This document shows, in pieces, positions 30,119-47,792 of a DNA stretch of 54,029 bases. Every line of letters begins with the position of its first letter. Position 1 is the stretch's first letter. Under the pieces are notes generated by a model. The model did not search any database, was not told the DNA's origin, and saw only the letters and a list, made by a program, of their open reading frames with translations. A program made the position numbers and the translations under genes. The DNA comes from Thioalkalivibrio sulfidiphilus. GTDB lineage: Bacteria; Pseudomonadota; Gammaproteobacteria; Ectothiorhodospirales; Ectothiorhodospiraceae. Location of the stretch: contig NZ_KB898943.1 of the NCBI RefSeq assembly GCF_000377945.1, positions 1 through 54,029 on the forward strand. Direction: 5' to 3'.

Positions 30119-30196
30119 TGAGGCGAGAGGCGTCAGGGGTTAGGCGTGCACCCGTGAACTTCGCCCCCTTACCCCTTACGTCTCACGCCTCACGCG
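30119..30196. repeat. Inverted heptamer array, GGNGTNA family
   Basis: Left words 30122-30149: GGCGAGA, GGCGTCA, GGGGTTA, GGCGTGC. Right words 30169-30196 on the minus strand: CGCGTGA, GGCGTGA, GACGTAA, GGGGTAA. The spacer is 19 bases. It is directly downstream of the ABC-F stop on the minus strand. Confidence 0.9.
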
Positions 30197-33956: not shown

Positions 33957-33982
33957 GATCAGATCTCCATTGTTTCAAGTGA

Positions 33983-34074
33983 GGGGTCAGGGTTTAGGCG
34001 TGAGGGGTGAGGAGTCAGGCGTTAGGCGTAGGAGCGGGATTGCTTTTCACTCCTCACGCCTAACCCCTCACGCC
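33983..34074. repeat. Inverted heptamer array, GGNGTNA family
   Basis: Seven left heptamers at 33983-34031 (GGGGTCA, GGGTTTA, GGCGTGA, GGGGTGA, GGAGTCA, GGCGTTA, GGCGTAG) face four at 34047-34074, read on the minus strand as GGCGTGA, GGGGTTA, GGCGTGA, GGAGTGA. The spacer is 15 bases. It lies just downstream of the cytochrome c4 gene and may end the operon transcript. Confidence 0.92.
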
Positions 34075-34093
34075 TCTCATACAAACCACCACT

Positions 34094-34771
34094 TCAACGC
34101 GCGTAGTACTCCGCCAAGGCGCGGATCTCCTCGTCGCTCAGATCCCAAGCGAACTGGGCCATGCCCTGGTGCACGTCGTTGTGACGGGTGTTGTCACGGA
34201 AGGCCTTGAGGGTGCGCACCAGGTACTCCGGGCGCTGACCGGCCAGGGACGGGGTCTCGTTGCGACCGCCCTGCCCCTCCACGCCATGACAGCTGGCGCA
34301 GGGGGTGATCAGGCGCTGGGGATCGCCGCGACGCACCAGGTCGTTCACCGGGTGTCCCTTCTTGAGCGGCGCACTGCCGGGCAGGGGCTGGGCGGCATAG
34401 AAGGCAGCCACGTCGGCCATGTCCTGCTCGCTCATCATGCGCGCCAGCACCACCATCATCTCGGCCCGGGCGTCCTCGTGGCGCAGGCCGTCGCGGTAGT
34501 CCAGCAGCATCTTGTAGGTGTAGGGCGCACGCTGACCGGAAAGCGCCGGCCAGTGACGACTCAGGGACTCGCCCCGCTCGCCGTGGCAGGAGGCGCAGAA
34601 CAGCGCATCGTGCAGTCTCGCGCCCCGCTCGGCATCCCCTTCCGGCATGGCGGCGAGCGCCGCGTGCAGGCGCACCGGCGTCCAGGTCTCGGCAGGCGCT
34701 TCGCCCTGCCCGGCCAGGGCCTGCCCGCCCAGGACAAACAGCAGCAGGAACAGCAACAGGTGTTTGCTCAT
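34094..34771 (-). CDS. Dihaem cytochrome c (c4-like)
   Basis: A 225-residue exported protein with signal peptide MSKHLLLFLLLFVLGGQALA and two haem c sites, CASCH at about residue 57 and CASCH at about 158, each followed in its half by a possible methionine ligand. The two halves are homologous (LSGQRAPYTYKMLLDYRDGL versus LAGQRPEYLVRTLKAFRDNT), the c4 arrangement. It is likely a periplasmic electron carrier between the flavoprotein encoded upstream and a terminal oxidase. The start at 34771 follows GGGGAGAG; the frame continues upstream in overlap with the flavoprotein gene without homology. Last gene of the five-gene redox operon, 13 bases after the flavoprotein gene. Confidence 0.95.
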   Translation of the reverse strand: MSKHLLLFLLLFVLGGQALAGQGEAPAETWTPVRLHAALAAMPEGDAERGARLHDALFCASCHGERGESLSRHWPALSGQRAPYTYKMLLDYRDGLRHEDARAEMMVVLARMMSEQDMADVAAFYAAQPLPGSAPLKKGHPVNDLVRRGDPQRLITPCASCHGVEGQGGRNETPSLAGQRPEYLVRTLKAFRDNTRHNDVHQGMAQFAWDLSDEEIRALAEYYAR

Positions 34772-34784
34772 GATTCTCTCTCCC

Positions 34785-36131
34785 CTACGCGAAGCAGTCT
34801 TCGGTGAAGGTACGCATCCAGTTCTGCTGGTACAGGGCGCCGATGCGGATCTGGGCGCGTGAGGCATCCAGGGGCAGGAAGCGCGGCCCCTCCATGCGCG
34901 TGATGCGTCCGTCCACCAGGCGGAAGATGTCGGCCACGTACAGGCCGTACTCGGTACCGGCCAGGGCATAGCAGGTGTTCTCCCACAGGGGCGCCTGGGT
35001 GTCGCGCCCGGCCAGCAGGTCCACCACGGCCCGGGCGGCCACCTTGGCCTGGGTGTTGGCGGAGAAGCCGGACTTGGGCATGGCATCGGCCACGCAGGCA
35101 TCGCCGATCACGTGGATGCCCGGATGACGGGTGGACTCGTGGGTGCGGCGGTCGATGGGGCAGTAGCCTCTCCCGTCCACCAGGTCCAGCTCGAAGGCCA
35201 CGCGGCCGGCCACCATGGGCGGCACGATGTTGAGCACATCCGCCTTGAAGCGCCCGGCCTCGGTCTCGACGCTCAAGCTTGCGGGATCCACGGACAGCAC
35301 CCGGCCGCCGTCACGCCCGGCCACCCAGTCCAGCATGCCCGGCGCATCGTGGATCTTCATGGGCCACTCGCCCTCGGTGGGCATGCCCTCCTGGAAGCGC
35401 TCCGGCACGTTGTAGCCGTACAGGCGGTTCCAGCCCAGCAGCATGCTGGGGCCCGGCACGAAGCTGTCCTTGGCATCCAGGATGATCACCTTGGCGGTCG
35501 GGTTGTGCACCTTGAACCATTCGGCCATCAGTGCACCGCGCTCGTAGGGCCCGGGTGGGCAGCGGTAGGGGTTGGGCGGGGCCACGATCACGAAGGTGCC
35601 GCCGGGGCGCATGGCATGCAGCTGGTCGCGCAGCAGTCGGGTCTGGGTGCCCGGGATCCAGGCGCTGGGGATGCGGCTCTCGGCCACGGACGCGCTGTAA
35701 CCCTCGATGCGCTCGTAGAGCAACTGGATGCCCGGCGAGACGATCATGCGGTCGTAGCCAAGCGTTGCACCGCCGGCGGTGCGCACCGTGCGCCGATGGG
35801 GATCCACGCCGGTGACCATGTCGAACAGGAACTCGATGCCGTAGCGGTCGCGCAGGCGATCGTAGCGGACCTCCAGATCGTCCATGCCGATGTGGTCGTT
35901 GAGCACCTCGCTGGAACCGTAGGGACGCAGGTAGACCGGGTTCTTCTCGATCACCGTCACGCGGATGTTCGGATCGGCCAGCTTCAGGTACTTGGCGGCC
36001 GTGGCGCCGCCCACCCCGCCGCCCACGATGACCACGTGGGGCGCGGCATTGGCGAACACGCTCTTGATGGACAGACCCGAGGCCAGCATCGCGCCGGCGC
36101 CCAGGGCCTTGAGAAAATCACGTCGCTGCAT
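34785..36131 (-). CDS. FCSD-like flavoprotein (sulfide dehydrogenase flavoprotein family)
   Basis: A 448-residue exported FAD protein with a twin-arginine signal (MQRRDFLKALGAGAMLASG). It has the FAD fold (HVVIVGGGVGGATAAKYLKL), the active-site cysteine in NPYRCPPGPYERG (about residue 190), the second redox cysteine in ENTCYALAG (about 386), DACVADAMPKSGFSANTQAK, and the FCSD C-terminal domain. These match the flavoprotein subunit FccB/SoxF, which oxidises sulfide to sulfur and passes electrons to cytochrome c. Unusual: the cysteine that covalently holds FAD in FccB (in a TCYLSN-type block) appears to be replaced by RPYGSSEV, so FAD may be non-covalent. It is followed by the c4 gene; the monohaem c gene lies 5 bases upstream. 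Confidence 0.93.
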   Translation of the reverse strand: MQRRDFLKALGAGAMLASGLSIKSVFANAAPHVVIVGGGVGGATAAKYLKLADPNIRVTVIEKNPVYLRPYGSSEVLNDHIGMDDLEVRYDRLRDRYGIEFLFDMVTGVDPHRRTVRTAGGATLGYDRMIVSPGIQLLYERIEGYSASVAESRIPSAWIPGTQTRLLRDQLHAMRPGGTFVIVAPPNPYRCPPGPYERGALMAEWFKVHNPTAKVIILDAKDSFVPGPSMLLGWNRLYGYNVPERFQEGMPTEGEWPMKIHDAPGMLDWVAGRDGGRVLSVDPASLSVETEAGRFKADVLNIVPPMVAGRVAFELDLVDGRGYCPIDRRTHESTRHPGIHVIGDACVADAMPKSGFSANTQAKVAARAVVDLLAGRDTQAPLWENTCYALAGTEYGLYVADIFRLVDGRITRMEGPRFLPLDASRAQIRIGALYQQNWMRTFTEDCFA

Positions 36132-36136
36132 GGTCT

Positions 36137-36469
36137 CTACTCCTCGGTTCCCTGGGCGGCGAAGAACTCGGCCATGGCCCGGTATTCCTCGTCGCTGAAG
36201 CCCACCGCCACGCTGTGCATGAGCGTGGACGGGCGAGTGCCGTCGCGGAAGGCGCGCATGGCGCGCACGAACTCCTCCACCTCCATACCCGCCAGGGGCA
36301 CGAAGGCGGCGGTGCCGAGGCGGCCATAGGTGCCATGGCAGGCGGCGCAGGTGTTGCCCATCATCTCGCCCGTGGGGCGTTCGGTCTGCTGCGCCACGGA
36401 CTCCTGGGCAGGGGCCGTGGCGGCGAACAGCGGCAGGAGCAGGGCGAGTGTGTAAACAAACTTCTTCAC
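36137..36469 (-). CDS. Monohaem cytochrome c, FCSD cytochrome-subunit-like
   Basis: A 110-residue exported c-type cytochrome with signal peptide MKKFVYTLALLLPLFAA and one haem site, MGNTCAACHGTYG (about residue 40). The later PSTLMHSVAVGFSDEEYRAM provides the likely methionine ligand. Position directly before the FCSD-like gene suggests it is the cytochrome partner of that flavoprotein. The start is set at GTG 36469 because a perfect AGGAGG lies 9 bases upstream; an ATG at 36487 in the same frame overlaps the previous gene's stop (TGATG) and is also possible, giving six extra residues. It is the third gene of the operon. Confidence 0.93.
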   Translation of the reverse strand: MKKFVYTLALLLPLFAATAPAQESVAQQTERPTGEMMGNTCAACHGTYGRLGTAAFVPLAGMEVEEFVRAMRAFRDGTRPSTLMHSVAVGFSDEEYRAMAEFFAAQGTEE

Positions 36470-36486
36470 GGTCGTCTGCCTCCTCA

Positions 36487-37713
36487 TCACAGCGCCCACC
36501 AGACAAAGCCGAGCACGAAGTAATGCACGATCCACAGCACCAGCATGGCGATGGCGATGTTGCCCATGCGGTCCACCACGGCGCTGGCGGTGTACACGCC
36601 ACGGGTTTGTCCGGCCCGCCAGGCCACGGTCAGGTAGTAGGCCAGCACGCCGACACCTAAGACGCCGAAGGTGACGAAGAAGGTGAGCGTGCTGTACCAG
36701 TCCATGTTGATGCTGTAATCCAGGGCGTTGTAACCGTGCACGCCGTGGAGCTTCGCCCAGCGCAGGGCCTCCCGGGCCACCGCCACCAGGATGATGGCCA
36801 CGGTGCCCACGCCGAGCACGGCATAGGCCCAGGGGCTGTCCCCCTTGCCGCGCACCCAGTGGGCAAAACCTACGAAACCCAGCAGACCGGCGGCCGCCAC
36901 CCACACCCAGGGGGAGAAGGCGAAACCCGCCACCGCTTCCGGCAGGGTCGCCATCCACACCGCGCCCAGCACCAGGGACACCACGCCGCCCAGGTTGATC
37001 AGCCGGTAGGCGAGATCGCGCACCCAGTCCAGGTAGTTTGGTTCGACGTCATCCCGGGCACGGAAATAGCGCTGGTAGGCCACCAGCAGCGCGCCGGTGA
37101 CCGGCGCCGACAGGGAGATGAAGAACAGGAAGCGCCAGGGATGGAAGGCGTGCAGCGCCGTGCCCCGGGTCTCCAGGTCGCCATGGGGGGCGTACCAGCT
37201 CATCCAGTGCTCCGGCTGCAGCATCTGCTGGGCGAGCACGTGCATGATGAAACCCACCACCAGCAGCAGGACCACCGAGGCCACCATGGCGCCGGGACAG
37301 CTCAACTTGCGCGCCGGGTCGGCCAGGTGGTGGTTGCGCCAGTAGAAGACGTACATCAGGGTGTAGCCCACCAGCAGGATCAGGATGAAGCCGATCACCC
37401 ACCAGGCGGACAGCACGTTGGCGGTGTACCAGAACGGGTCGTAGATCACCTGCACGAACAGCAGCGGCGCGACCCCCAGCACGATGGCCACCGAGACCAT
37501 CACCTTGGCCACGTTGATCATGGACTGGGCCAGGCGGCGGCGATGGGCGTCCTTGCTGAACGCCCCCCACAGGGTCAGGGTCGAGGCGCCGAGCATCATC
37601 TGCACGGCGGCGATGTGCAGCGCGAAGGTCAGCACCCCCAGCACCAGGAAGATCACCGGGTGGGAGGGGATGCCCGCCGGGTCGCGCAGGGCATAGAGCA
37701 GTTCGGTTTCCAT
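36487..37713 (-). CDS. Multi-span membrane subunit of a bd-oxidase-like complex
   Basis: A 408-residue integral membrane protein with about nine hydrophobic segments and no haem c motif. Its first membrane segment reads VLTFALHIAAVQMMLGAST, with a histidine placed as in TM1 of cytochrome bd CydA and of the partner protein encoded upstream. The following GVAPLLFVQVIYDPFWYTAN and WVIGFILILLVGYTLMYVFY also recall the CydA fold. I infer a diverged paralogue of CydA serving as second subunit, but confident family assignment needs profile searches. It starts four bases after the upstream gene's stop, with AAGGAG as ribosome binding site, and overlaps the next gene by one base, so all are co-translated. 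Confidence 0.83.
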   Translation of the reverse strand: METELLYALRDPAGIPSHPVIFLVLGVLTFALHIAAVQMMLGASTLTLWGAFSKDAHRRRLAQSMINVAKVMVSVAIVLGVAPLLFVQVIYDPFWYTANVLSAWWVIGFILILLVGYTLMYVFYWRNHHLADPARKLSCPGAMVASVVLLLVVGFIMHVLAQQMLQPEHWMSWYAPHGDLETRGTALHAFHPWRFLFFISLSAPVTGALLVAYQRYFRARDDVEPNYLDWVRDLAYRLINLGGVVSLVLGAVWMATLPEAVAGFAFSPWVWVAAAGLLGFVGFAHWVRGKGDSPWAYAVLGVGTVAIILVAVAREALRWAKLHGVHGYNALDYSINMDWYSTLTFFVTFGVLGVGVLAYYLTVAWRAGQTRGVYTASAVVDRMGNIAIAMLVLWIVHYFVLGFVWWAL

Positions 37714-37717
37714 GGCC

Positions 37718-39139
37718 TTACTCCTTCATGGAGACGGAAGCGGGCAGATCGTCCGCCTGTGCAATCGCGGCGCGCTGCGCGGCGTAGCGCGCGGGCACCT
37801 GCGGGTCGTTGAGGCTGGCCATGTACACGGCCAGGGCCTCGGCCTCGTCATCGGTGAGCGGGATCAGGGGCATGTACAGGGTGTTGCCCGTGGTGAGCGC
37901 GCCCTTGAGATAGGTCTTGATGCGCGCCACGTCGGTGTGGCCGCCCAGGTAATTGCGCAGCGGGCGCATGCCGGTGTCGGTGACGCTGTGGCAGTTGGCG
38001 CACATGGACAGCGCGATGGCGCGTCCCACCCGGGCGGCGTTCTCGCCGTTCACCTCGCGCAGTTCCTCGGGCAGGAACACGTGGGTCTTGAGCAGGCCGT
38101 GTTCCTGGATCACCGGGATCTCCGAGCGGATGCCCATGCCCGGCACGTCACGGCCGATCACCTGGTTGGAGTAGACGTACTCGCCTGCCACGAAGGGCTT
38201 GCGGATGGACTCGCGCGCCACCTCCTCGGGCCACAGGCCGAACACCAGGATGGACACCGTGGCGATGGAGGCCACCACCGGCGTGAGCAGGCGCGGCTGG
38301 ATCAGGGAGGCGATGAAATACACCAGGATGCCGCCCAGCACCGCCAGCAGGCTCACGGAGAACCAGTCGGGCAGACGGGCCTGCATCACCAGGTGCGCGT
38401 GCTCAGGCAGGGTGCTGGTGTACCAGCTGAACAGCGCCGTGCCGGTGATGGTGGAGACGATGCCCAGCCAGGCCAGCTTGCGGATGATCTCCCGGCGCAG
38501 GTCCAGGTCCGTCAGGCGCGAGGCCACGATGCCGCCCACCACGGCGGTCATGGTGAACATGAAGGCCGAGCGCATGGCCAGCTGGGCGAAGGTGTTGGAA
38601 CCGTAGAAGCCGTTGAGATAGCCGCCCTCGGCGAACCACGCCTCCTTGCCCGGCCAGAGCATGAAGGACAGGATGCCGATGATGATCAGCATGGTGGCGT
38701 AGGAGGCCAGGGCGAAGATCCAGGTGATGCGCAGGTGGGTGCGCTGATCCACCTTGCCCACCAGGTAGACCACCATGTACACGCCCACCACTTCGATGAC
38801 GAAGAACACCCACTCGGTGGCCCACTTCCACACGAAGCTGTGGATCAGCGCCGAGATGCCCCGCGGGCTCGCCACCGTGGTGGAGTACCAGATGCCGACG
38901 CCGGTGATCGACCCCGCCACGTAGGCGAACACCAGCAGGAACAGCCCGTAGCGCTTGATGAAAATGAGCAGCTCGGGCTTGTTGCGCCGGTAGGCGATGG
39001 TCGCCAGGAAGGCGAAGAAGATGGCCGCCCCCACGGAGGTGTGGGAGAACAGCACGTGGATGGTGGCGATGAGACCCACGACCCAGCCGCTGCCGATCGT
39101 AGGCTCGTACCACGTGGGATAAAGGCCGATGAGTTCCAT
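37718..39139 (-). CDS. Cytochrome bd-like subunit I with C-terminal cytochrome c domain
   Basis: A 473-residue protein: about eight membrane segments (residues 1-305), a periplasmic linker, and a C-terminal haem c domain with MCANCHSVTDTGMRPL (about 378). TM1 contains IATIHVLFSHTSVGAA, matching the CydA segment with haem ligand His19. WATEWVFFVIEVVGVYMV resembles the CydA helix with E99 and E107. A clear match to CydA His186 is missing, and I see no quinol-binding Q-loop. This resembles, from memory, the proposed OR-C class of bd-like proteins that lack the quinol site and carry haem c. The start at 39139 is preferred because a sigma-54 promoter lies inside the longer frame. First gene of the five-gene redox operon. 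Confidence 0.88.
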   Translation of the reverse strand: MELIGLYPTWYEPTIGSGWVVGLIATIHVLFSHTSVGAAIFFAFLATIAYRRNKPELLIFIKRYGLFLLVFAYVAGSITGVGIWYSTTVASPRGISALIHSFVWKWATEWVFFVIEVVGVYMVVYLVGKVDQRTHLRITWIFALASYATMLIIIGILSFMLWPGKEAWFAEGGYLNGFYGSNTFAQLAMRSAFMFTMTAVVGGIVASRLTDLDLRREIIRKLAWLGIVSTITGTALFSWYTSTLPEHAHLVMQARLPDWFSVSLLAVLGGILVYFIASLIQPRLLTPVVASIATVSILVFGLWPEEVARESIRKPFVAGEYVYSNQVIGRDVPGMGIRSEIPVIQEHGLLKTHVFLPEELREVNGENAARVGRAIALSMCANCHSVTDTGMRPLRNYLGGHTDVARIKTYLKGALTTGNTLYMPLIPLTDDEAEALAVYMASLNDPQVPARYAAQRAAIAQADDLPASVSMKE

Positions 39140-39224: not shown

Positions 39225-39240
39225 TGCACAGGCCGTGCCA
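39225..39240 (-). promoter_or_regulatory. Sigma-54 promoter of the bd-like/FCSD-like operon
   Basis: On the minus strand TGGCACGGCCTGTGCA fits the sigma-54 consensus TGGCACG-N4-TTGCA with the invariant GG-N10-GC spacing; only one base of the -12 box differs. It lies 85 bases before the start codon at 39139. The gene for a sigma-54 activator ends 217 bases upstream on the same strand. Apart from this promoter and the terminator at 39365-39389, the 317-base gap holds no gene. Confidence 0.78.
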
Positions 39241-39447: not shown

Positions 39448-39474
39448 TAAATCCTGTTAATCCTGTCCATGATC
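39448..39474. repeat. Single-armed nonamer array, TTAATCCTG family
   Basis: TAAATCCTG, TTAATCCTG and the partial word TCCATGATC run in register at 39448-39474. The same words form the inner arms of the element at 6938-7083. Here only one arm is present, and it codes for the last residues and the TAA stop of the sigma-54 regulator. Confidence 0.7.
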
Positions 39475-40782
39475 CCGCCCTTCCCGAAGCCCTTCCAGCT
39501 TCCGGTACAGGGTGCGCTCGCTCACCCCCAGCAGCCGCGCCAGTTCCCGGCGCTCGCCCCGGTAGCGGGCGCTGACCCGACGCAGGTAGCGGCCCTCCAG
39601 CTCGTCCAGGGGGATGATCTCGCCCGATTCGGGGCACAGGTTCTCCTGCCGGGCCGGGTGGGGTCCGAGCGCCAGGTGGCGGGCCTCGATCTCCCGGTCG
39701 TCCGCCAGCAGGCTTGCCCGCTCCAGCAGGTTGCGCAGTTCGCGGATGTTGCCGGGAAAGGGGTAATCGCGCAGCGCGGCCAGGGCATCCCGGCCCAGGC
39801 GCTTGCCCCGGGCCGAGGGGATGCGCGCCAGCAGCGCCTCTGCCAGCACGGCCAGGTCCTCTCGCCGCTCCCGAAGGGCCGGCAGTTGGATGGGAAACAC
39901 GCTGATGCGGTAGAAGAGGTCTTCCCTGAACTCACCGGCGCGCACCAGGGCCTCCAGGTCCCGGTGGGTGGCGCACACCAGCCGGAAGTCCGCCTTCTGG
40001 GGCTCGATGCCGCCCACCCGCCGGAAGGTGCCGGTCTCCAGCAGGCGCAGCAGCTTCACCTGCATGCCCAGGGGGATGTCGCCCAGCTCGTCCAGGAACA
40101 GGGTGCCGCCGCGGGCCGCCTCCACCAGGCCCACCTTCATGCTGGTGGCGCCGGTGAAGGCACCGCGCTCGTGGCCGAAGAGCTCGCTTTCGAACAGGGT
40201 CTCGGTGAGGCCCGCGCACTCCACCGCCACGAAGGGGCCGGTGTGCCGTGGACTGAGTTCGTGGATCGCCTGAGCCACCAGTTCCTTGCCGGTGCCGGTC
40301 TCTCCCAGCAGCAGCACCGTCGCCTCGCTGGGCGCCACGCGCTGCACCAGCCCCAGCATGTGGTTGAAGGCAGGCGAGCGCCCCACCAGCTTCTCGGCAC
40401 TGGGCCTGGCGCTGGCCACCTTGCTCTGGCGCATGATCTCCAGCACGTAATGCACACGCCCATCGGCACGCGGTATGGGTCGGGTCTCCACGTCCACGTG
40501 CTCCTCGCCCCGGGGTGTCTGGTGCAGATGCAGGACCCGCTGGGCCTGCCCCGTCTCCAGACACCCCTTCAGGGGACAGCTCTCCCCGGCCTGGTCACAG
40601 GGAACCGTGTAGCCATGGGAGACCTGGAAGCACTTGCGCCCGCGGCCCGCCTCGCCGTAGACGCGCCGGTAGGCGCTGTTGGCGGCCAGGATGCGGTAAT
40701 CGGGATCCAGCAGCACCGCCGGCTCGTCATGGGAGTCCAGCAGTCCGAGGAGTTCCGGGGAGAGGGGAGCAGGAGAGGACAT
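39457..40782 (-). CDS. Sigma-54-dependent Fis-family activator with cysteine-rich PAS domain
   Basis: A 441-residue enhancer-binding protein. The N-terminal PAS domain (about residues 10-125) contains a cysteine cluster, [20 protein letters not shown] followed by PLKGC. The AAA+ domain (about 140-375) has [15 protein letters not shown] (sigma-54 contact, about 207), LFLDELGD and the arginine-finger region. A Fis-type helix-turn-helix ends it ([20 protein letters not shown]). The PAS cysteines could sense redox state or a sulfur compound, or bind an Fe-S cluster. It lies immediately upstream of the bd-like/FCSD-like operon, which has a sigma-54 promoter, so this is the likely target. Its own promoter is not clear; repeats fill the upstream gap. 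Confidence 0.96.
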
Positions 40783-40907: not shown

Positions 40908-41091
40908 CTAGCCCGCATATCTCACCACCGTTCGTAGCGAGGGCGCCGAGATGCCGCTGTGACGGGGCGCGCGGAGCGGAAGACGGCGCAGGCGTAGCCG
41001 ACACTACGTCAAGCCGGCTGGAGGGAGCACGCCCCGTCACAGCGAGCAGATCGGCGGCCGCAGTAGAAGGGTGGTGAGATATGCGGGCTAG
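40908..41091. mobile_element. MITE-like 184-bp element with 22-bp perfect terminal inverted repeats
   Basis: Perfect 22-bp inverted repeats at 40908-40929 (starting CTAGCCCGCATATCTCACC) and 41070-41091 bound a 184-bp segment. It has a second 14-bp internal inverted repeat (40956-40969 with 41030-41043) and a small CGTAG/CTACG hairpin. It is too short to encode a transposase and has no open reading frame of note. Both outer ends are CTAG, which may be the target duplication. The right repeat supplies the TAG stop of the rubredoxin reductase gene. The terminal sequence differs from that of the IS1182-like element, apart from the CTAG. Confidence 0.7.
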
Positions 41092-42233
41092 AGCACGGCC
41101 GGCACCTGCTTCGACAGGGCCTGCTTCTCCTTCACCGCCTCGGCGCCGGTGAGCACGAAGCCGCCCACCTCATCGCCCTGACTGAACACCGCGCGCACGC
41201 CCTCGCCCACCGACTCGATCTTCCACTCGCCCACCGCACCGGGCGCAGGCGGGGCCACCACCACCGGGTGGGCGGGGGTCTTCACCACTACGGGCATGGC
41301 CGGATAGCTGACCTGGGTAGGTTCGCCGGCCAGGGTCTTCGCCAGGGCCCGGGCCGCGTGCATGATGGGCATCACGTAGGGCAGCACCAGACCGGCCACC
41401 TGGGCACAGTCACCCAGGGCATAGACGCCCTCGGCGGAGGTGGCGAGAGTGCGATCCAGCACGATGCCGCGATCCACTTCCAGACCCGCTTCCCGGGCCA
41501 GTCGGGTATCGGGGCGCAGGCCCACGGCGGAGAGGATCGCGCCGGCCTCGACGGTCTCGCCGTTGTCCAGGCTCAGGCGAAAGCCCGTGTCCTTGCGATC
41601 GATGCGCTTGACCACGGTCTCCAGGTGGAATCGGATACCGGCGGCCTCGAGCCCCTTCTGGATGGCGCGACCCGCCGCCTCCGGGACCAGGCGCCCCAGG
41701 GGGGCGGTGTCGGGCCCGATCACGTCCACCTCGCGTCCGCTGCCGCGCAGGTCATTGGCGAACTCGCAGCCGATCAGGCCAGGGCCGATCACGGCCACGT
41801 GCCCCACCCCCTCGATGGCCTCGCGGAAGCGCCCGTAGTCCTCGCGGCTGTTCACCGACAGCACCGCATCGGCACCGTCGCCTTCGTAGGAGAGGCGAAT
41901 GGGCTCGGCGCCCACCGCCAGCACCAGGCGGCCGTAGTCCAGGGACTCGCCGTCCTCAAGGCGCACCTGCCGTGCGGCGGTGTCGATGGCCGCCACCCGG
42001 CGCCGGGTCAGGATGCGCGCATCCAGCTGCCCGGCCATGGCCTCGGCGCTCTGGCTGATCAGGGCCTCGGGATCCTTGTTGGAGGCAAACGCATTGGACA
42101 GCATGGGCTTGGAATAGAAGGCCCCGTCGTCCGCCGTGACCAGGGTCAGCGGCGTCTCTTTGTCCAGCTTGCGGAACTCACGGGCCAGGGTATAGCCGGC
42201 CAGTCCCGTGCCGATGATGACGATTCCCGACAT
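41088..42233 (-). CDS. Rubredoxin-NAD(+) reductase
   Basis: A 381-residue FAD/NAD(P)H oxidoreductase: FAD motif IVIIGTGLAGYTLAREFRKL, the internal NAD motif HVAVIGPGLIGCEFANDL (about residue 148), GRLVLAVGAEPIRL, and GVYALGDCAQ. The C-terminal 70 residues (PVVVKTPAHPVVVAPPAPGA) match the rubredoxin-binding domain of Pseudomonas-type rubredoxin reductase (about 384 residues). It moves electrons from NAD(P)H to rubredoxin, encoded just upstream, and on to rubrerythrin for peroxide reduction. The TAG stop is contributed by the terminal repeat of the MITE-like element, so the last residues may have been altered by that insertion. Confidence 0.94.
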   Translation of the reverse strand: MSGIVIIGTGLAGYTLAREFRKLDKETPLTLVTADDGAFYSKPMLSNAFASNKDPEALISQSAEAMAGQLDARILTRRRVAAIDTAARQVRLEDGESLDYGRLVLAVGAEPIRLSYEGDGADAVLSVNSREDYGRFREAIEGVGHVAVIGPGLIGCEFANDLRGSGREVDVIGPDTAPLGRLVPEAAGRAIQKGLEAAGIRFHLETVVKRIDRKDTGFRLSLDNGETVEAGAILSAVGLRPDTRLAREAGLEVDRGIVLDRTLATSAEGVYALGDCAQVAGLVLPYVMPIMHAARALAKTLAGEPTQVSYPAMPVVVKTPAHPVVVAPPAPGAVGEWKIESVGEGVRAVFSQGDEVGGFVLTGAEAVKEKQALSKQVPAVL

Positions 42234-42237
42234 GTCT

Positions 42238-42300
42238 TCAGGCTCCCGCGTAGCAGCGGCCCAGCAGGCGCCACCATTTGATGATCGGTTTGTTTTTCAT
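42238..42300 (-). CDS. Possible 20-residue peptide between rubredoxin and its reductase
   Basis: A very short frame encoding MKNKPIIKWWRLLGRCYAGA. It has a well-placed GGAGG upstream of the ATG at 42300 and ends 4 bases before the rubredoxin reductase start. It is basic and amphipathic, with two tryptophans and one cysteine. It may be a leader peptide coupling translation of the reductase, or a real microprotein. I know no homologue. The evidence is the ribosome binding site and the tight spacing only. Confidence 0.35.
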   Translation of the reverse strand: MKNKPIIKWWRLLGRCYAGA

Positions 42301-42326
42301 GACATTGCCTCCATTGAGGCAGGTCA

Positions 42327-42389
42327 GGCGTGAGGTGTCAGGCGACAGGCGTGACACTGCACCACGCCTCACCCCTCACGCCTCCCACC
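42327..42389. repeat. Inverted heptamer array, GGNGTNA family
   Basis: Left heptamers 42327-42354: GGCGTGA, GGTGTCA, GGCGACA, GGCGTGA. Right heptamers 42362-42389 on the minus strand: GGTGGGA, GGCGTGA, GGGGTGA, GGCGTGG. The spacer is 7 bases. The last codons and TAA stop of the rubredoxin gene read GGCGTAA and so form one more word in register. Confidence 0.9.
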
Positions 42390-42560
42390 TTACGCCGCGA
42401 CCAGCACCATCTCGAAGTCGGCCTTGGCCACGCCGCACTCGGGGCATTCCCAGTTTTCCGGGATGTCTTCCCAGCGGGTACCCGCGGCGATGCCGTCCTC
42501 CGGCATGCCCACGGCCTCGTCGTAGATGAACCCACACACCACACATTCCCACTTTCTCAT
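42390..42560 (-). CDS. Rubredoxin
   Basis: A 56-residue rubredoxin with both iron-binding pairs, [13 protein letters not shown] (residues 6-9) and [12 protein letters not shown] (39-42), a normal length and spacing for the family. It carries single electrons from rubredoxin reductase to acceptors such as rubrerythrin. It begins at ATG 42560 with GGAG upstream, 101 bases after the rubrerythrin gene, and is followed by the 20-residue frame and the reductase gene. The gene order rubrerythrin, rubredoxin, reductase makes a complete NAD(P)H-to-peroxide chain. Confidence 0.97.
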
Positions 42561-42616
42561 GATCGATCTCCAATAACCTGTTCAGTTGTCTGTTTGAGGC
42601 GGGGCAACGCCCCGCC

Positions 42617-42658
42617 CCCTTGTCTCTTGCATCTTGCATCTTGGATCTTGTCTCTGCG
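42617..42658. repeat. Single-armed heptamer array, MTCTTGN family
   Basis: Six consecutive heptamers: CCCTTGT, CTCTTGC, ATCTTGC, ATCTTGG, ATCTTGT, CTCTGCG. No facing arm is present, but a GC hairpin (GGCGGGGC against GCCCCGCC, about 42598-42616) precedes it. It starts four bases after the rubrerythrin stop on the minus strand. Confidence 0.85.
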
Positions 42659-42661
42659 CCT

Positions 42662-43156
42662 TTATGCGACCTTGCGAGCCGCTTCCACCCGCGCCAGCGC
42701 ATCCTTGTAGTGATTGGCGTGACGCTCTTCCACCCGGGCCAGGGCGGCGAAGCGCTTGGCGGCCTTCTCCAGGACGCCCTGGAAGTAGTCGGCGTGCTCA
42801 ATGGACTCGGCGATCTGCTCGTCGAACTCGCGCACCGCGGCCTCGTTCTTCTCCTGCATGGCCATGTGACGGAACTGCGGGTACATCTCGCTGTATTCGT
42901 AGGTCTCGCCCTCGATGGCCAGTTCCAGGCACCGGGCCGGGTTCATCTTGGCCTTGGGAAACAGCAGGTCCAGGTGACCGAATGCATGCTGCACCTCCTG
43001 GGCGGCGGTGGCCTCGAAGGCCTGCGCGGACTCGATATCGCCCATCTCGCGGCACAGCTTGGCGAAATACAGGTACTTGATATGGGCCATGGACTCGCCG
43101 GCAAACGCGGCTTCCAGGTTCTTGACGGTGACCGAACCGTTCTCGGACTGCTTCAT
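42662..43156 (-). CDS. Rubrerythrin (without rubredoxin domain)
   Basis: A 164-residue di-iron peroxidase of the erythrin type. It carries the ferritin-like four-helix bundle with ligand helices AAFAGESMAHIKYLYFAKLC, FEATAAQEVQHAFGHLDLLF, AIEGETYEYSEMYPQF and ARVEERHANHYKDALARV, providing ExxH-type iron ligands. The C-terminal rubredoxin domain of classic rubrerythrin is absent; the separate rubredoxin gene downstream supplies it. It reduces hydrogen peroxide to water. The start at 43156 lies behind a good -10/-35 pair and an OxyR box, so peroxide induction through the adjacent oxyR gene is likely. Confidence 0.96.
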   Translation of the reverse strand: MKQSENGSVTVKNLEAAFAGESMAHIKYLYFAKLCREMGDIESAQAFEATAAQEVQHAFGHLDLLFPKAKMNPARCLELAIEGETYEYSEMYPQFRHMAMQEKNEAAVREFDEQIAESIEHADYFQGVLEKAAKRFAALARVEERHANHYKDALARVEAARKVA

Positions 43157-44628: not shown

Positions 44629-46647
44629 ATGCCACACCATCGCCTGGCCCTGGCCATCGCAGTTGCACTGAGCATTCCCTGCGCCCACGCGGACATCATC
44701 CTGGCGCCCATCACCGTGACCGCCACCCAGGAAGTCGCGATACCCGCCACGGATCAGCTTACCGAGCACACCCCGCTGCAGAGCCCCAAGGCCGACGCGG
44801 GCGAGGCCCTGCGACTGATCCCGGGGGTATCCGGCTCGCGCATGGGTCAGCACGGCATCGACCCCATCATCCGGGGCCAGACGGCGGATCAGCTCAACGT
44901 GCTGATCGATGGCGGCTTTGTATTCGCCGCCTGCCCCAACCGCATGGACCCGCCCACCAGTTTCGGCTCATTGATGCTGTATGACCGTATCGTGGTGGAA
45001 AAGGGGGTGCAGAGCCTGCTGCACGGCCCGGGCGGCAGTGGCGGCACCATCCTGTTTGAACGCGACACCGCCGAGATGGCCGCCGAACCCGGCGTGCGCG
45101 GGCGACTGAGTTTCGGCGCCAACGACAACGGCCTGCACGGCGACGTGGGCCTGGACATGCTGATGAGCAACGGCCAGGGTTATGTGCGCGTGCTGGGGGA
45201 GGCGCTCAACGCCGGCAACTACGAGGACGGCGATGGCAACGAGGTCCCCTCCTCCATGAAAAAGCGCGCCGTCACCCTGATCGGCGGCTACCGCCACGAC
45301 AATCACAGCGGCGTGGAGGCCTCGGTGGATCGATCCCGGGTCACCGACGCTCGCTATGCCGGCGCCGGCATGGACTCTCCGGATGATGAGCTGAGCGCCT
45401 ACCGGCTCAAGGGCTGGGCCGAGGCCCTGGACGGACCGGTCAGCGGCGTGAAGGCGGAAGCATGGCGCAGCGACGTGGACCACGTCATGGACAACTTCTC
45501 CCTGCGCGAACCGGCCAACCCGATGATGCTCAGGCGCTCGCCCACCACCTCCCGCACCACCGGTGGCCGGCTGATTCTGAGCTCGCAACTGGATCGCGCC
45601 GAGTTGGACTACGGCGTGGATCTCCGGCGGGTGGACCGCGATGCGGTCCTGCTAGACGCCCTGAGCGGTGACCTGCTGTTCCGCACCTGGCCGGATGCAC
45701 GCCAGGACAACCTGGGACTGTTCGCCCAGGCAGACATGCAGACTGGCACGGCCGGACTGCTGCGCGCCGGTCTGAGGGTGGATCGCCACGAATCCAGTAT
45801 CGACAGCGATCTGGAAGGACAGAGCATCGCCAACGCCATCGCGCCCTGGGTGCCGGAAGGCACGGCGGAAGCGGCCGGCAAGACGCGCAGGGACACCCAG
45901 GTCAGCGCCCTGCTGCGTTATGAACATGCGATCAACGGCTCGCTCACCGCCTTCACCGGCCTGAGCCGAACCATCCGCCAGCCGGATGCCACCGAGCTCT
46001 ACTTCTACCGACCGCACATGACTGAACGGCTCATCGGCAACCCGTCCCTGGACGCCGAGAAGCACCATCAGCTGGACCTGGGCGTGGTCGGCCAGGGACC
46101 GCGCCTGAGCTACGAGGCCGCGCTTTTCTACGACCGGGTGGAGGATTTCATCCTGCGTGACGATGTGGGCAGCACCCTCAGCTTCCGCAACGTCAGGGCC
46201 ACGCTCTGGGGCGCGGAACTGGGCGCCGGTTTCCGCCTGCATGATGACCTGATCCTGAGCGGCGCCCTGGCCTACGTGCGCGGCCGAAATGAAAGCGATG
46301 GCCGCGACCTGCCGCAGATCCCGCCGTTGAACGGGCATGTGGGCCTGGAATACCAGCCCGCTCAGTGGCTGCTGGGCGCGCGCACCCGCTTCGCCGACAA
46401 GCAGACCCGCATCGACACCCTGGGCGGCCTGGACACCATTGAAACCCCGGCCTGGGCCGTGCTGGATCTGTACGGCAGCTACCGGGTGAACCGGCAGCTG
46501 GAAATGCGCGCGGGCGTGGACAACCTGTTCGACCGTCACTACGCGGAACACGTCAACCGCAACTACTCAGCCCTGTTCGGAGACCCAACGGATCGCATCT
46601 ACGAGCCGGGCCGCACCCTGTGGGCGCGGGTCAACGTGACGTTCTGA
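44629..46647 (+). CDS. TonB-dependent copper receptor (OprC/NosA-like)
   Basis: A 672-residue outer-membrane receptor with signal peptide (MPHHRLALAIAVALSIPCAH), plug domain (about residues 40-160: GEALRLIPGVSGSRMGQHGI, DGGFVFAACPNRMDPPTS) and a 22-strand beta barrel ending in F (LWARVNVTF). The CxxxM motif CPNRM at about 102-106 and the HxM in DHVMDN at about 285-287 correspond to the copper-binding CxxxM-HxM residues known from Pseudomonas OprC. TonB box candidates lie near ITVTATQE. It likely imports copper for enzymes such as haem-copper oxidases or nitrous oxide reductase. A sigma-54 promoter precedes it and a PspF-like activator gene follows convergently. Confidence 0.93.
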   Translation: MPHHRLALAIAVALSIPCAHADIILAPITVTATQEVAIPATDQLTEHTPLQSPKADAGEALRLIPGVSGSRMGQHGIDPIIRGQTADQLNVLIDGGFVFAACPNRMDPPTSFGSLMLYDRIVVEKGVQSLLHGPGGSGGTILFERDTAEMAAEPGVRGRLSFGANDNGLHGDVGLDMLMSNGQGYVRVLGEALNAGNYEDGDGNEVPSSMKKRAVTLIGGYRHDNHSGVEASVDRSRVTDARYAGAGMDSPDDELSAYRLKGWAEALDGPVSGVKAEAWRSDVDHVMDNFSLREPANPMMLRRSPTTSRTTGGRLILSSQLDRAELDYGVDLRRVDRDAVLLDALSGDLLFRTWPDARQDNLGLFAQADMQTGTAGLLRAGLRVDRHESSIDSDLEGQSIANAIAPWVPEGTAEAAGKTRRDTQVSALLRYEHAINGSLTAFTGLSRTIRQPDATELYFYRPHMTERLIGNPSLDAEKHHQLDLGVVGQGPRLSYEAALFYDRVEDFILRDDVGSTLSFRNVRATLWGAELGAGFRLHDDLILSGALAYVRGRNESDGRDLPQIPPLNGHVGLEYQPAQWLLGARTRFADKQTRIDTLGGLDTIETPAWAVLDLYGSYRVNRQLEMRAGVDNLFDRHYAEHVNRNYSALFGDPTDRIYEPGRTLWARVNVTF

Positions 46648-46651
46648 GAGA

Positions 46652-46787
46652 GGTGTGAGGTGTGAGGTGTGAGGTGTGAGGTGTGAGGCAGAGCATCCCC
46701 GCCTTACGCCTTACGCCTTACGCCTTACGCCTTACGCCTTACGCCTTACGCCTTACGCCTTACGCCTTACGCCTTACGCCTTACGCC
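46652..46787. repeat. Heptamer microsatellite pair: GGTGTGA x5 facing TTACGCC x12
   Basis: Five perfect copies of GGTGTGA (46652-46686), a 17-base spacer, then twelve perfect copies of TTACGCC (46704-46787), that is GGCGTAA on the minus strand. These are two words of the GGNGTNA family. The perfect copies imply recent slippage expansion. It fills the gap between convergent genes; the PspF-like gene's TGA directly follows the last copy. Confidence 0.95.
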
Positions 46788-47792
46788 TCACTCCCCCTCC
46801 AGGGCGTACTTCTTGATGCGATACAGGAGGGTGTCCCGGGTCAGGCCCAGCAGACGGGCGGCCCGGGTGCGGTTGCCCTGGGTACGGCCCAAGGCCTGGC
46901 GGATGAGGCCTGCCTCCAGCCGATCCAGCTGCACGCCGTCCCGGGGCAACTGCCAGTCAGGCAGGTCTCCGAGCGCATTGGAACGGACCTCCAGCTGCAA
47001 GTGTTCCGGGTCGACCGTCTGACCGCTGTAGAGCACGACACAACGTTCGCAGAGATTGCGCAACTCCCGCACGTTGCCAGGCCAGCGATGACGGGTCAGC
47101 AGACGCCGGGCCTGAACGGAGAAGCGAGGCGGGCTGACCCCGTGGCGCGCGGCCAGCTTTTCGGTCAGGGCATCCAGCAACACCCCGATGTCCCCCGGCC
47201 GCTCCCGCAGGGGTGGCAACTCCAGGGGGATCACGTGCAGCCGGTAATAGAGGTCTTCCCGGAACCGGCCTGTATCCACCCAGTGGCGCAGGTCGCGATG
47301 GGTGGCCGCGAGCACGCGGACATCCACCGGTTCCGGAGTATCACTGCCCAGGGCCTGGCATTCTCCCTGTTCCAGGAAGCGCAGCAGCTTTGCCTGGGCA
47401 CTCAGGGGCAGCTCGGCCACCTCATCCAGAAACAGGGTGCCGCCCTGGGCCTGGCGGATGCGCCCGGGCCGGTCCGTCATGGCGCCGGTGAAGGCACCTC
47501 GCCGGTAACCGAACAGCTCCGCCTCGACGAGATCCCGGGGTAAGGCGGCACAGTTGACCGCCACCCAGGGCCCGCGAGCACGTCGGCTCTCGTGGTGGAT
47601 CAATCGCGCCAGCAGCTCCTTGCCGGTGCCGGTTTCCCCGAGCACCAGGGCGGTGGCGTCAGTGGCTGCGACCACCCGCGCAGCGCGTAACACCGAGAGG
47701 AATTCCGGGGATTCGCCGATCATATCCTGGGGATGAAAGCCAGTGGGCTGCATGCTTAGCTCAGGTTCGGTTTGAAGGTCGATGGGTTTCAT
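46788..47792 (-). CDS. Sigma-54 activator without sensor domain (PspF-like)
   Basis: A 334-residue enhancer-binding protein consisting of only a 30-residue N-terminal extension, an AAA+ domain (about residues 34-270: [27 protein letters not shown] about 97, FLDEVAELPLSAQAKLLRFL) and a C-terminal Fis-type helix-turn-helix (NRTRAARLLGLTRDTLLYRI). Like PspF it lacks a receiver, PAS or GAF domain, so its activity must be controlled by another protein or by expression. It lies convergent to the copper receptor gene, which has a sigma-54 promoter. The start at 47792 (MKPIDLQ) is chosen over a TTG ten codons upstream; an ATG at 47753 is also possible. The ribosome binding site is weak. Confidence 0.94.
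   Translation of the reverse strand: MKPIDLQTEPELSMQPTGFHPQDMIGESPEFLSVLRAARVVAATDATALVLGETGTGKELLARLIHHESRRARGPWVAVNCAALPRDLVEAELFGYRRGAFTGAMTDRPGRIRQAQGGTLFLDEVAELPLSAQAKLLRFLEQGECQALGSDTPEPVDVRVLAATHRDLRHWVDTGRFREDLYYRLHVIPLELPPLRERPGDIGVLLDALTEKLAARHGVSPPRFSVQARRLLTRHRWPGNVRELRNLCERCVVLYSGQTVDPEHLQLEVRSNALGDLPDWQLPRDGVQLDRLEAGLIRQALGRTQGNRTRAARLLGLTRDTLLYRIKKYALEGE

What the first reader, a model, noticed from the sequence alone, without database searches (positions are those of the whole stretch)
34094..39139. Operon for a possible self-contained periplasmic-donor-to-oxygen chain: bd-like subunit fused to cytochrome c, second membrane subunit, cytochromes and an FCSD-like flavoprotein
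Five tightly packed genes (gaps of 4, 17 or overlap, 5 and 13 bases) encode a CydA-like protein with a C-terminal haem c domain, another multi-span protein also resembling CydA in TM1, a monohaem c, a flavoprotein of the sulfide dehydrogenase family and a dihaem c4. The CydA-like protein keeps a TM1 histidine and the two-glutamate helix, but I see no quinol loop and no clear counterpart of His186. From memory, bd-like proteins without a quinol site but with haem c have been proposed as a separate class (OR-C). The operon suggests that electrons from sulfide or another sulfur compound go by c-type cytochromes straight to a bd-like oxygen reductase, bypassing quinone.
Basis: partly seen in the sequence, partly recalled or inferred. 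Interest (0 to 1): 0.85.

Follow-up and report, generated by a model that had tools for sequence, protein, structure and literature searches.

The report
Sulfide-linked, quinone-independent bd-like oxygen reductase operon
A conserved five-gene unit, seen in many bacteria of sulfur-oxidising groups, looks built to carry electrons from sulfide through c-type cytochromes straight to a bd-type oxygen-reducing enzyme that has lost its usual quinol site, which suggests a compact and untested respiratory chain that skips quinone.

Summary
In detail: five packed minus-strand genes at 34094-39139. The first protein is a distant CydA with a periplasmic haem c domain. It keeps counterparts of the active-site ligands H19 (H28) and E445 (E310), but has no Q-loop and no counterpart of H186 or M393. 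New here: the second membrane protein, which no Pfam or NCBIfam model recognises, also has a CydA fold (best Z 25.2), so the core is probably a CydA/CydA' pair. The flavoprotein is an FccB with both redox cysteines; most operon copies lack the covalent-flavin cysteine. Among 79 close relatives, mostly beta/gammaproteobacterial, 49 have full context: MemB, FccB, c4 and a monohaem c accompany the oxidase gene on one strand in 49 of 49. In a tree, 75 operon FccB rows lie on one side of one branch from 43 ordinary ones. In the window's order, 4 of 47 genomes have the oxidase and the same 4 have this FccB type, although all 47 carry some FccB. Other core pairs (Thermus, Methylosinus and Agrobacterium plasmids, four further loci) lack FccB. 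Best reading: a cytochrome-c-fed bd-type O2 reductase with a dedicated sulfide dehydrogenase. Nothing was measured; OR-C membership could not be tested.

The parts
37718..39139 (-). CydA-like oxidase subunit with C-terminal periplasmic haem c domain (CydA-c, 473 aa)
38195..38212 (-). E310-x-x-R313-K314-P315 motif, likely counterpart of CydA E445-x-x-R448-Q-P450 (haem b595 ligand and GRQPW region)
   Evidence: invariant in 79 of 79 rows with letters there; the end of the structural alignment, model 322 to chain residue 457, gives the same register
37988..38002 (-). haem c attachment site C380-A-N-C383-H384
36487..37713 (-). second membrane subunit (MemB, 408 aa), CydA fold, probable CydA' paralogue; H33, H158, H188, E315 do not vary in the close family
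36137..36487 (-). monohaem cytochrome c, FccA-like by position
34785..36131 (-). FccB-like flavoprotein, Tat-like start (RR conserved; Pfam TAT model below its cut-off); redox cysteines C191 and C387
34094..34771 (-). dihaem cytochrome c4-like
39225..39240 (-). sigma-54-type promoter-like element TGGCACGGCCTGTGCA, one mismatch to the (recalled) consensus
39457..40782 (-). NtrC-type sigma-54 enhancer-binding regulator with PAS_4 domain, possible regulator of the operon
   Evidence: relatives in 20 of 79 related loci

Best explanation
The operon encodes a sulfide:oxygen electron-transfer chain. FccB (flavin, active Cys pair) oxidises sulfide or a related reduced sulfur compound in the periplasm and passes electrons to its monohaem FccA-like partner. 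Dihaem c4 and/or the haem c domain fused to the oxidase collect them. The oxidase is a heterodimer of two CydA-fold subunits (CydA-c and MemB) that keeps the b595/d-type di-haem site but has lost haem b558 and the quinol site, so electrons enter from haem c instead of quinol. Protons for water formation would come from the cytoplasm as in other bd enzymes, making it electrogenic without quinone. Shown here: gene content, predicted folds, conserved ligand positions, missing quinol features, strict co-occurrence in the close family, a separate FccB group. Inferred: haem content, O2 as acceptor, sulfide as donor, electron order, proton source, heterodimer and any larger complex.
For: CydA-c model matches CydA chains over residues 11-322 (Z 23.3, 302 residues, rmsd 3.7); family profile A2 matches canonical CydA (prob 85, E 6e-6). 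H28, H33, H100, E109, E116 in 80 of 80 rows; R190, E306, E310, R313, K314, P315 in 79 of 79. At 26-56% identity H28, H33, E109, R190, E310, R313-K-P stay in all eight rows. No Q-loop, no H186 counterpart. MemB: CydA fold (Z 25.2, 344 residues), related to CydA-c by profile (prob 83, E 9e-6) with the same R-E-x-x-R motif. FccB: both cysteines aligned to 1fcd C161 and C337 in 75 of 75 operon rows. MemB, FccB, c4 and monohaem c in 49 of 49 full-context loci, one strand. Operon FccB split from 43 ordinary rows by one branch, SH-aLRT 100. In the order, operon-type FccB in exactly the 4 of 47 genomes with CydA-c. Haem c domain outside by the positive-inside pattern.
Against: Profile A3 matches canonical CydA only weakly (prob 13, E 0.002); MemB's profile does not match it. 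The profile alignment puts E116 on E107 but leaves E109 in a gap, so E109 as E99 is by analogy only; H100 is lost in the Agrobacterium and G293 rows and E116 is Asp in Thermus; in MemB H158 is not kept in Agrobacterium and G293, nor H188 there and in Thermus. CydA-c model confidence is middling (pLDDT 76, pTM 0.71). The genome has 4 COX1-family matches and a second FccB. SoxB is not clearly enriched in carriers (7 of 10 against 143 of 359). A published tree puts all Thioalkalivibrio FccB in one cluster (PMC6382920), which my split would not predict if the window's order is that group (not established). No haem, activity or expression data.
Confidence: 0.6

Rival explanations
1. General cytochrome c oxidase: the bd-like enzyme takes electrons from the whole c pool (bc1, Sox, ordinary FccAB), and the linked FccAB is only one of several donors, kept together by co-regulation.
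For: Core pair exists without FccB in Thermus, Methylosinus and Agrobacterium plasmids and in L025, L026, L028 and L107; L025 and L026 have a dihaem c partner. The genome also has SoxB and ordinary FccB.
Against: Operon-type FccB occurs only with the oxidase in the 47-genome order set and forms its own group; synteny 49 of 49.
Confidence: 0.23
2. Protection rather than respiration: an O2-, NO- or sulfide-stress module that removes O2 or NO using sulfide electrons, switched on by the sigma-54 regulator.
For: Rubredoxin reductase and rubrerythrin genes lie upstream beyond the regulator; regulator and promoter-like element; other oxidases present.
Against: The rubrerythrin and rubredoxin reductase neighbours were found in 0 of 79 related loci; many carriers bear names of sulfur-oxidiser genera, although others are Hydrogenophaga, Rhodoferax or Tepidimonas; detoxification and respiration are not exclusive.
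Confidence: 0.1
3. The flavoprotein acts on another substrate (polysulfide, organic thiol, thiocyanate product) or works at a different potential, so the chain is not sulfide-specific.
For: Only 25 of 75 operon FccB rows keep the cysteine aligned to C42 of 1fcd, against 42 of 43 ordinary rows, so the flavin chemistry may differ. An FccAB in another cluster, that of thiocyanate dehydrogenase, is induced by thiocyanate (PMC5744179, passages).
Against: Both redox cysteines invariant; the closest solved relatives are sulfide dehydrogenases.
Confidence: 0.07

Closest known systems
Canonical cytochrome bd (CydAB, qOR families)
   Same: CydA fold; counterparts of H19, E107, E445 and part of the GRQPW motif
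   Different: No Q-loop, no H186 or M393 counterpart, haem c fused, partner fits CydA better than CydB
OR-C family of the bd superfamily (Murali, Gennis and Hemp 2021; paper not held, OR-C details recalled; only the family names seen in PMC13189123, PMC10839748 and PMC11707229)
   Same: bd-like, no quinol site, with haem c, as recalled
   Different: Not placed by profile here; the FccAB-c4 operon link is not stated in any passage seen
OR-N CydAA' of Nitrospinota and Nitrospirales (passages of PMC10839748, and PMC12342949)
   Same: Two CydA-type subunits; cytochrome c as likely donor (said in PMC10839748)
   Different: Here a haem c domain and a sulfide dehydrogenase in the operon; carriers mainly beta/gammaproteobacterial by record title
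Flavocytochrome c sulfide dehydrogenase FccAB (1fcd)
   Same: FccB domains and both cysteines; a monohaem partner has precedent in Thiobacillus sp. W5 (said in PMC5744179, passage)
   Different: Separate group, covalent-flavin cysteine mostly lost, tied to an oxidase

Membership tests
Cytochrome bd oxygen reductase superfamily | CydA fold | tested here: met
   Z 23.3 for CydA-c and 25.2 for MemB against CydA chains of bd entries; predicted models
Cytochrome bd oxygen reductase superfamily | Active-site haem ligands H19 and E445 (numbers recalled in part) | tested here: met
   H28 aligned with H19, 80 of 80 rows; E310 by motif and structural register, 79 of 79 rows. Haem binding itself not tested
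Cytochrome bd oxygen reductase superfamily | Helix with E99 and E107 | tested here: inconclusive
   E109 and E116 in 80 of 80 rows; E116 aligns with E107, E109 falls in a gap; spacing 7 against 8 in canonical rows
Cytochrome bd oxygen reductase superfamily | Profile match to CydA above the curated cut-off | tested here: not met
   22 bits against 26.2 for PF01654; profile-profile E 6e-6 with A2, E 0.002 with A3
Quinol-oxidising bd (qOR) | Q-loop between TM6 and TM7 | tested here: not met
   17-residue loop in the model; the GDESGY...EHQP stretch of canonical CydA is absent from P0001
Quinol-oxidising bd (qOR) | Haem b558 ligands H186 and M393 | tested here: not met
   M189/R190 at the H186 position, R190 in 79 of 79; no FRIM-like motif in P0001
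OR-C | Placement by OR-C profile or tree | not testable with these tools
   Profiles and paper not held
OR-C | No quinol site plus haem c (definition recalled) | tested here: met
CydAA'-type heterodimer | Second subunit is a CydA paralogue | tested here: inconclusive
   Fold and motif agree; direct profile match to canonical CydA not found; no complex was modelled
Flavocytochrome c sulfide dehydrogenase | FccB domains and redox cysteine pair | tested here: met
Flavocytochrome c sulfide dehydrogenase | Covalent FAD cysteine (C42 in 1fcd; role recalled) | tested here: not met
   P70 in the window; 25 of 75 operon rows and 42 of 43 ordinary rows have Cys

The most novel reading that the evidence does not exclude
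The five proteins form one physical, self-contained sulfide:O2 oxidoreductase: a flavocytochrome docked on a CydAA'-type bd enzyme that takes electrons from haem c, has no b558 and conserves energy without any quinone. This would give a dedicated role to one of the unexplained extra FccAB copies of sulfur oxidisers, and might correspond to membrane-bound monohaem flavocytochrome such as that of Thiobacillus W5.
Probability: 0.35. Interest if true: 0.85.

Novelty: new variant of a known kind. Interest (0 to 1): 0.68.

Why it matters
What feeds bd-type oxygen reductases that lack a quinol site is not settled in the passages I could read: for OR-N, cytochrome c is called the likely donor and experimental confirmation of composition and function is said to be lacking (PMC10839748). 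This operon names a donor that can be tested. It also bears on why sulfur oxidisers keep several FccAB copies: a survey of 75 Thioalkalivibrio genomes found more than one fccB in 37 of 75, left their role open, and reported no conserved genes around fccAB in a comparison of diverse sulfur oxidisers (PMC6382920, passages and sections 18, 19, 24). Here one FccB group keeps the same neighbours across many genera. Because no Pfam or NCBIfam model recognises the second subunit and the first is annotated 'cytochrome c' or 'c-type cytochrome' on four plasmids, such oxidases are easily missed in genome-based accounts of respiration.

Tried and rejected
Chance clustering or misread ORFs: rejected. MemB as CydB: in each of ten bd entries the best chain was the CydA one (chain identity taken from letter and length), though CydB chains also match in Foldseek. 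MemB as NrfD/PsrC or ACIII membrane subunit: weaker (Z 14.5-17.8). MemB has no credible PDB relative by sequence. My first sigma-54 scan used wrong positions and is void; one search replaces it. Alignment A1 held three loci in the wrong strand and is void; A2 replaces it. SoxB co-occurrence gave no clear enrichment (the two draws of 369 appear to be the same genomes). Literature: eight searches showed no paper in their listings describing this operon, nor did passages of PMC11707229, PMC7618691, PMC8951039, PMC12569097, PMC10892978, PMC5733100, PMC5328954 and PMC6614595. Only open-licence PMC texts are searched, no paper was read whole, and figures are not held. OR-C reference sequences could not be obtained.
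Full report
Observation. P0001 (473 aa) has a weak CydA match and a C-terminal haem c domain, both below Pfam's cut-offs; P0002 (408 aa) matches no credible Pfam family and no NCBIfam model; P0003 is a monohaem c; P0004 carries both FCSD domains and a Tat-like start; P0005 is a dihaem c.

The oxidase subunit. Twelve homologues (A2) match twelve canonical CydA sequences by profile (prob 85, E 6e-6, residues 18-232). A denser but less diverse alignment (A3) does so only weakly (prob 13, E 0.002). The predicted structure (28-sequence alignment, pLDDT 76, pTM 0.71) has bd entries in its ten best rows, best Z 23.3 over 302 residues, residues 11-322 on 2-457 of E. coli bd-II. The end of that alignment puts E310 on E445 and R313 on R448. 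H28, H33, H100, E109 and E116 are identical in 80 of 80 rows; R190, E306, E310, R313, K314 and P315 in 79 of 79 with letters there. In one search H28 aligns with H19 and E116 with E107, while E109 falls in a gap, so calling it E99 is by analogy. The H186 position is M189/R190, the FRIM stretch that holds M393 is missing, and 17 residues link TM6 and TM7. E. coli ligand numbers are recalled, apart from E99, E107 and E445, which appear in titles of the reference list of PMC8951039. Loops 1, 3 and 5 carry more K/R than the even inter-helix loops (loop 7 does not), so the N-terminus and the haem c domain are most likely outside.

The second subunit. MemB's model (27-sequence alignment, pLDDT 87, pTM 0.87) also matches CydA best: Z 25.2 over 344 residues. 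Foldseek's own best rows mix CydA and CydB chains. CydA-c and MemB profiles match each other (prob 83, E 9e-6), aligning H28 with H33 and R-E-S-I-R with R-E-A-L-R. A direct match of MemB's profile to canonical CydA was not found. In MemB, H33, H158, H188, E315 and D338 do not vary in rows with letters. In the two most distant pairs (Agrobacterium plasmid, G293) E315 is replaced by His while H33 and R318 stay, which is what a haem ligand might do; H158 and H188 are not kept there, nor H188 in Thermus.

The flavoprotein. P0004 aligns over its length with 1fcd. Counting along that alignment, C191 is C161, C387 is C337 and P70 is C42. C191 and C387 are present in 75 of 75 operon rows and 43 of 43 ordinary rows. 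The C42 position is Cys in 25 of 75 operon rows and 42 of 43 ordinary rows. That C161-C337 is the redox pair and C42 binds FAD covalently is recalled. So the operon type should be redox-competent, with a flavin usually held non-covalently.

Co-occurrence. In genome contigs 216 relatives were found, the best 80 kept, giving 79 loci. Of these, 49 have at least 3 kb upstream and 5 kb downstream: MemB, FccB and c4 are present in 49 of 49 and monohaem c in 49 of 49 by raw matches (47 by my stricter filter, which mislabelled L041 and L050), all on one strand. Order is CydA-c, MemB, FccB, c4 in 46 and FccB first in 3. Of the 30 remaining loci, 13 lack something: 12 with less than 3.5 kb downstream, and L107, with 10 kb downstream, lacks FccB, monohaem c and c4. 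The 136 other relatives were not examined. Record titles are mostly beta- and gammaproteobacterial, one says Deltaproteobacteria (L091), some are vague. In the window's order CydA-c occurs fully in 4 of 47 genomes (a fifth, G028, matched only by a cytochrome domain). All 47 have some FccB at E <= 1e-60, but the 82-100% identical operon type is in exactly those 4; the next best full-length match is 46%. In 369 genomes of the class, 10 have CydA-c and 65 have FccB at E <= 1e-60, 7 of the 10 among them. A tree of 75 operon and 43 ordinary FccB rows separates them by one branch (SH-aLRT 100; quick method, midpoint root, so which side is a clade is not shown). The 43 are those for which the two searches returned loci plus the window genome's second copy, not all matches; at least two operon rows repeat a genome.

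The core without FccB. A plasmid search found four records: Methylosinus, two Thermus, Agrobacterium, each with CydA-c followed by a second gene that aligns with MemB, and no FccB in the annotated stretch (annotation of that collection is incomplete). The pair is therefore probably the enzyme, and FccAB-c4 the add-on of a sulfur-oxidiser branch. CydA-c keeps H28, H33, E109, R190, E310 and R313-K-P in all eight rows compared; E116 is Asp in Thermus and H100 is lost in Agrobacterium and G293.

Regulation. A sigma-54-like site with one mismatch lies at 39225-39240. In related loci 11 of 76 upstream regions have a site within two mismatches, against 0.9% of internal control pieces and 0.7% of shuffles. 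The next gene upstream is an NtrC-type activator with PAS_4; relatives at E <= 1e-15, 41-63% identical, lie in 20 of 79 loci. This is suggestive only.

Genome setting. The genome has no CydA over the cut-off, four COX1-family matches, a second FccB, an APS reductase marker and SoxB, as expected of a sulfur oxidiser. Carriers in the class are not clearly richer in SoxB (7 of 10 against 143 of 359).

Known context. OR-N enzymes are described as CydAA' with cytochrome c as likely donor, unconfirmed by experiment (PMC10839748, passages); they are also reported in Nitrospirales (PMC12342949, passages). The split into qOR, OR-C and OR-N is quoted in PMC13189123 (passage). A survey of Thioalkalivibrio sulfur genes reports several fccAB copies, no conserved neighbourhood in its comparison across sulfur oxidisers and an open role, and says that all Thioalkalivibrio FccB fall in one cluster (PMC6382920, sections 18, 19 and 24; figures not seen). 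The last point sits badly with my split if the window's unnamed order is that group, unless operon copies were not in its set. A monohaem Fcc with sulfide dehydrogenase activity is said to be known from Thiobacillus sp. W5 (PMC5744179, passage). No paper in eight search listings describes this operon.

Verdict. A real, conserved and unusually coherent unit: most likely a cytochrome-c-fed bd-type oxygen reductase with its own sulfide dehydrogenase. The anatomy is shown; the chemistry is inferred.

Noticed in passing
window 41088-43156, minus strand: Rubredoxin reductase-like flavoprotein and a rubrerythrin beyond the regulator; neither was found in the 79 related loci.
   Followed up: partly
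window 30123-30195, 33977-34073, 42328-42395, 46646-46793: Heptad-type intergenic repeat (GCGTGAG/GCGTAAG units, inverted arms): 34 matches at up to 3 mismatches in the whole window against 5.2 expected.
   Followed up: partly
L145 (Methylosinus plasmid pMSC49c) and L148 (Agrobacterium plasmid): Core oxidase pair with an annotated ATP-binding protein and a response regulator close downstream instead of FccAB; on the Methylosinus plasmid it lies beside methanobactin genes.
   Followed up: no
L026 7363-9183, minus strand: MemB fused to a dihaem cytochrome domain (two CxxCH) in one 606-aa protein, which supports the c4-oxidase partnership.
   Followed up: partly
L078, L080, L083, L084, L087, L089, L098, L100, L101, L103, L106 (Thiomicrorhabdus, Hydrogenovibrio, Sulfurivirga and kin): Operon FccB variants with Val or Ala at the position of C324 (C274 of 1fcd), a possible functional sub-type.
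   Followed up: no
L075 5963-7417 and 11720-13177 (Thiomicrorhabdus heinhorstiae): Two CydA-c ORFs of 485 aa, each followed by a MemB ORF, with FccB and c4 between them: apparently a duplicated oxidase pair.
   Followed up: no
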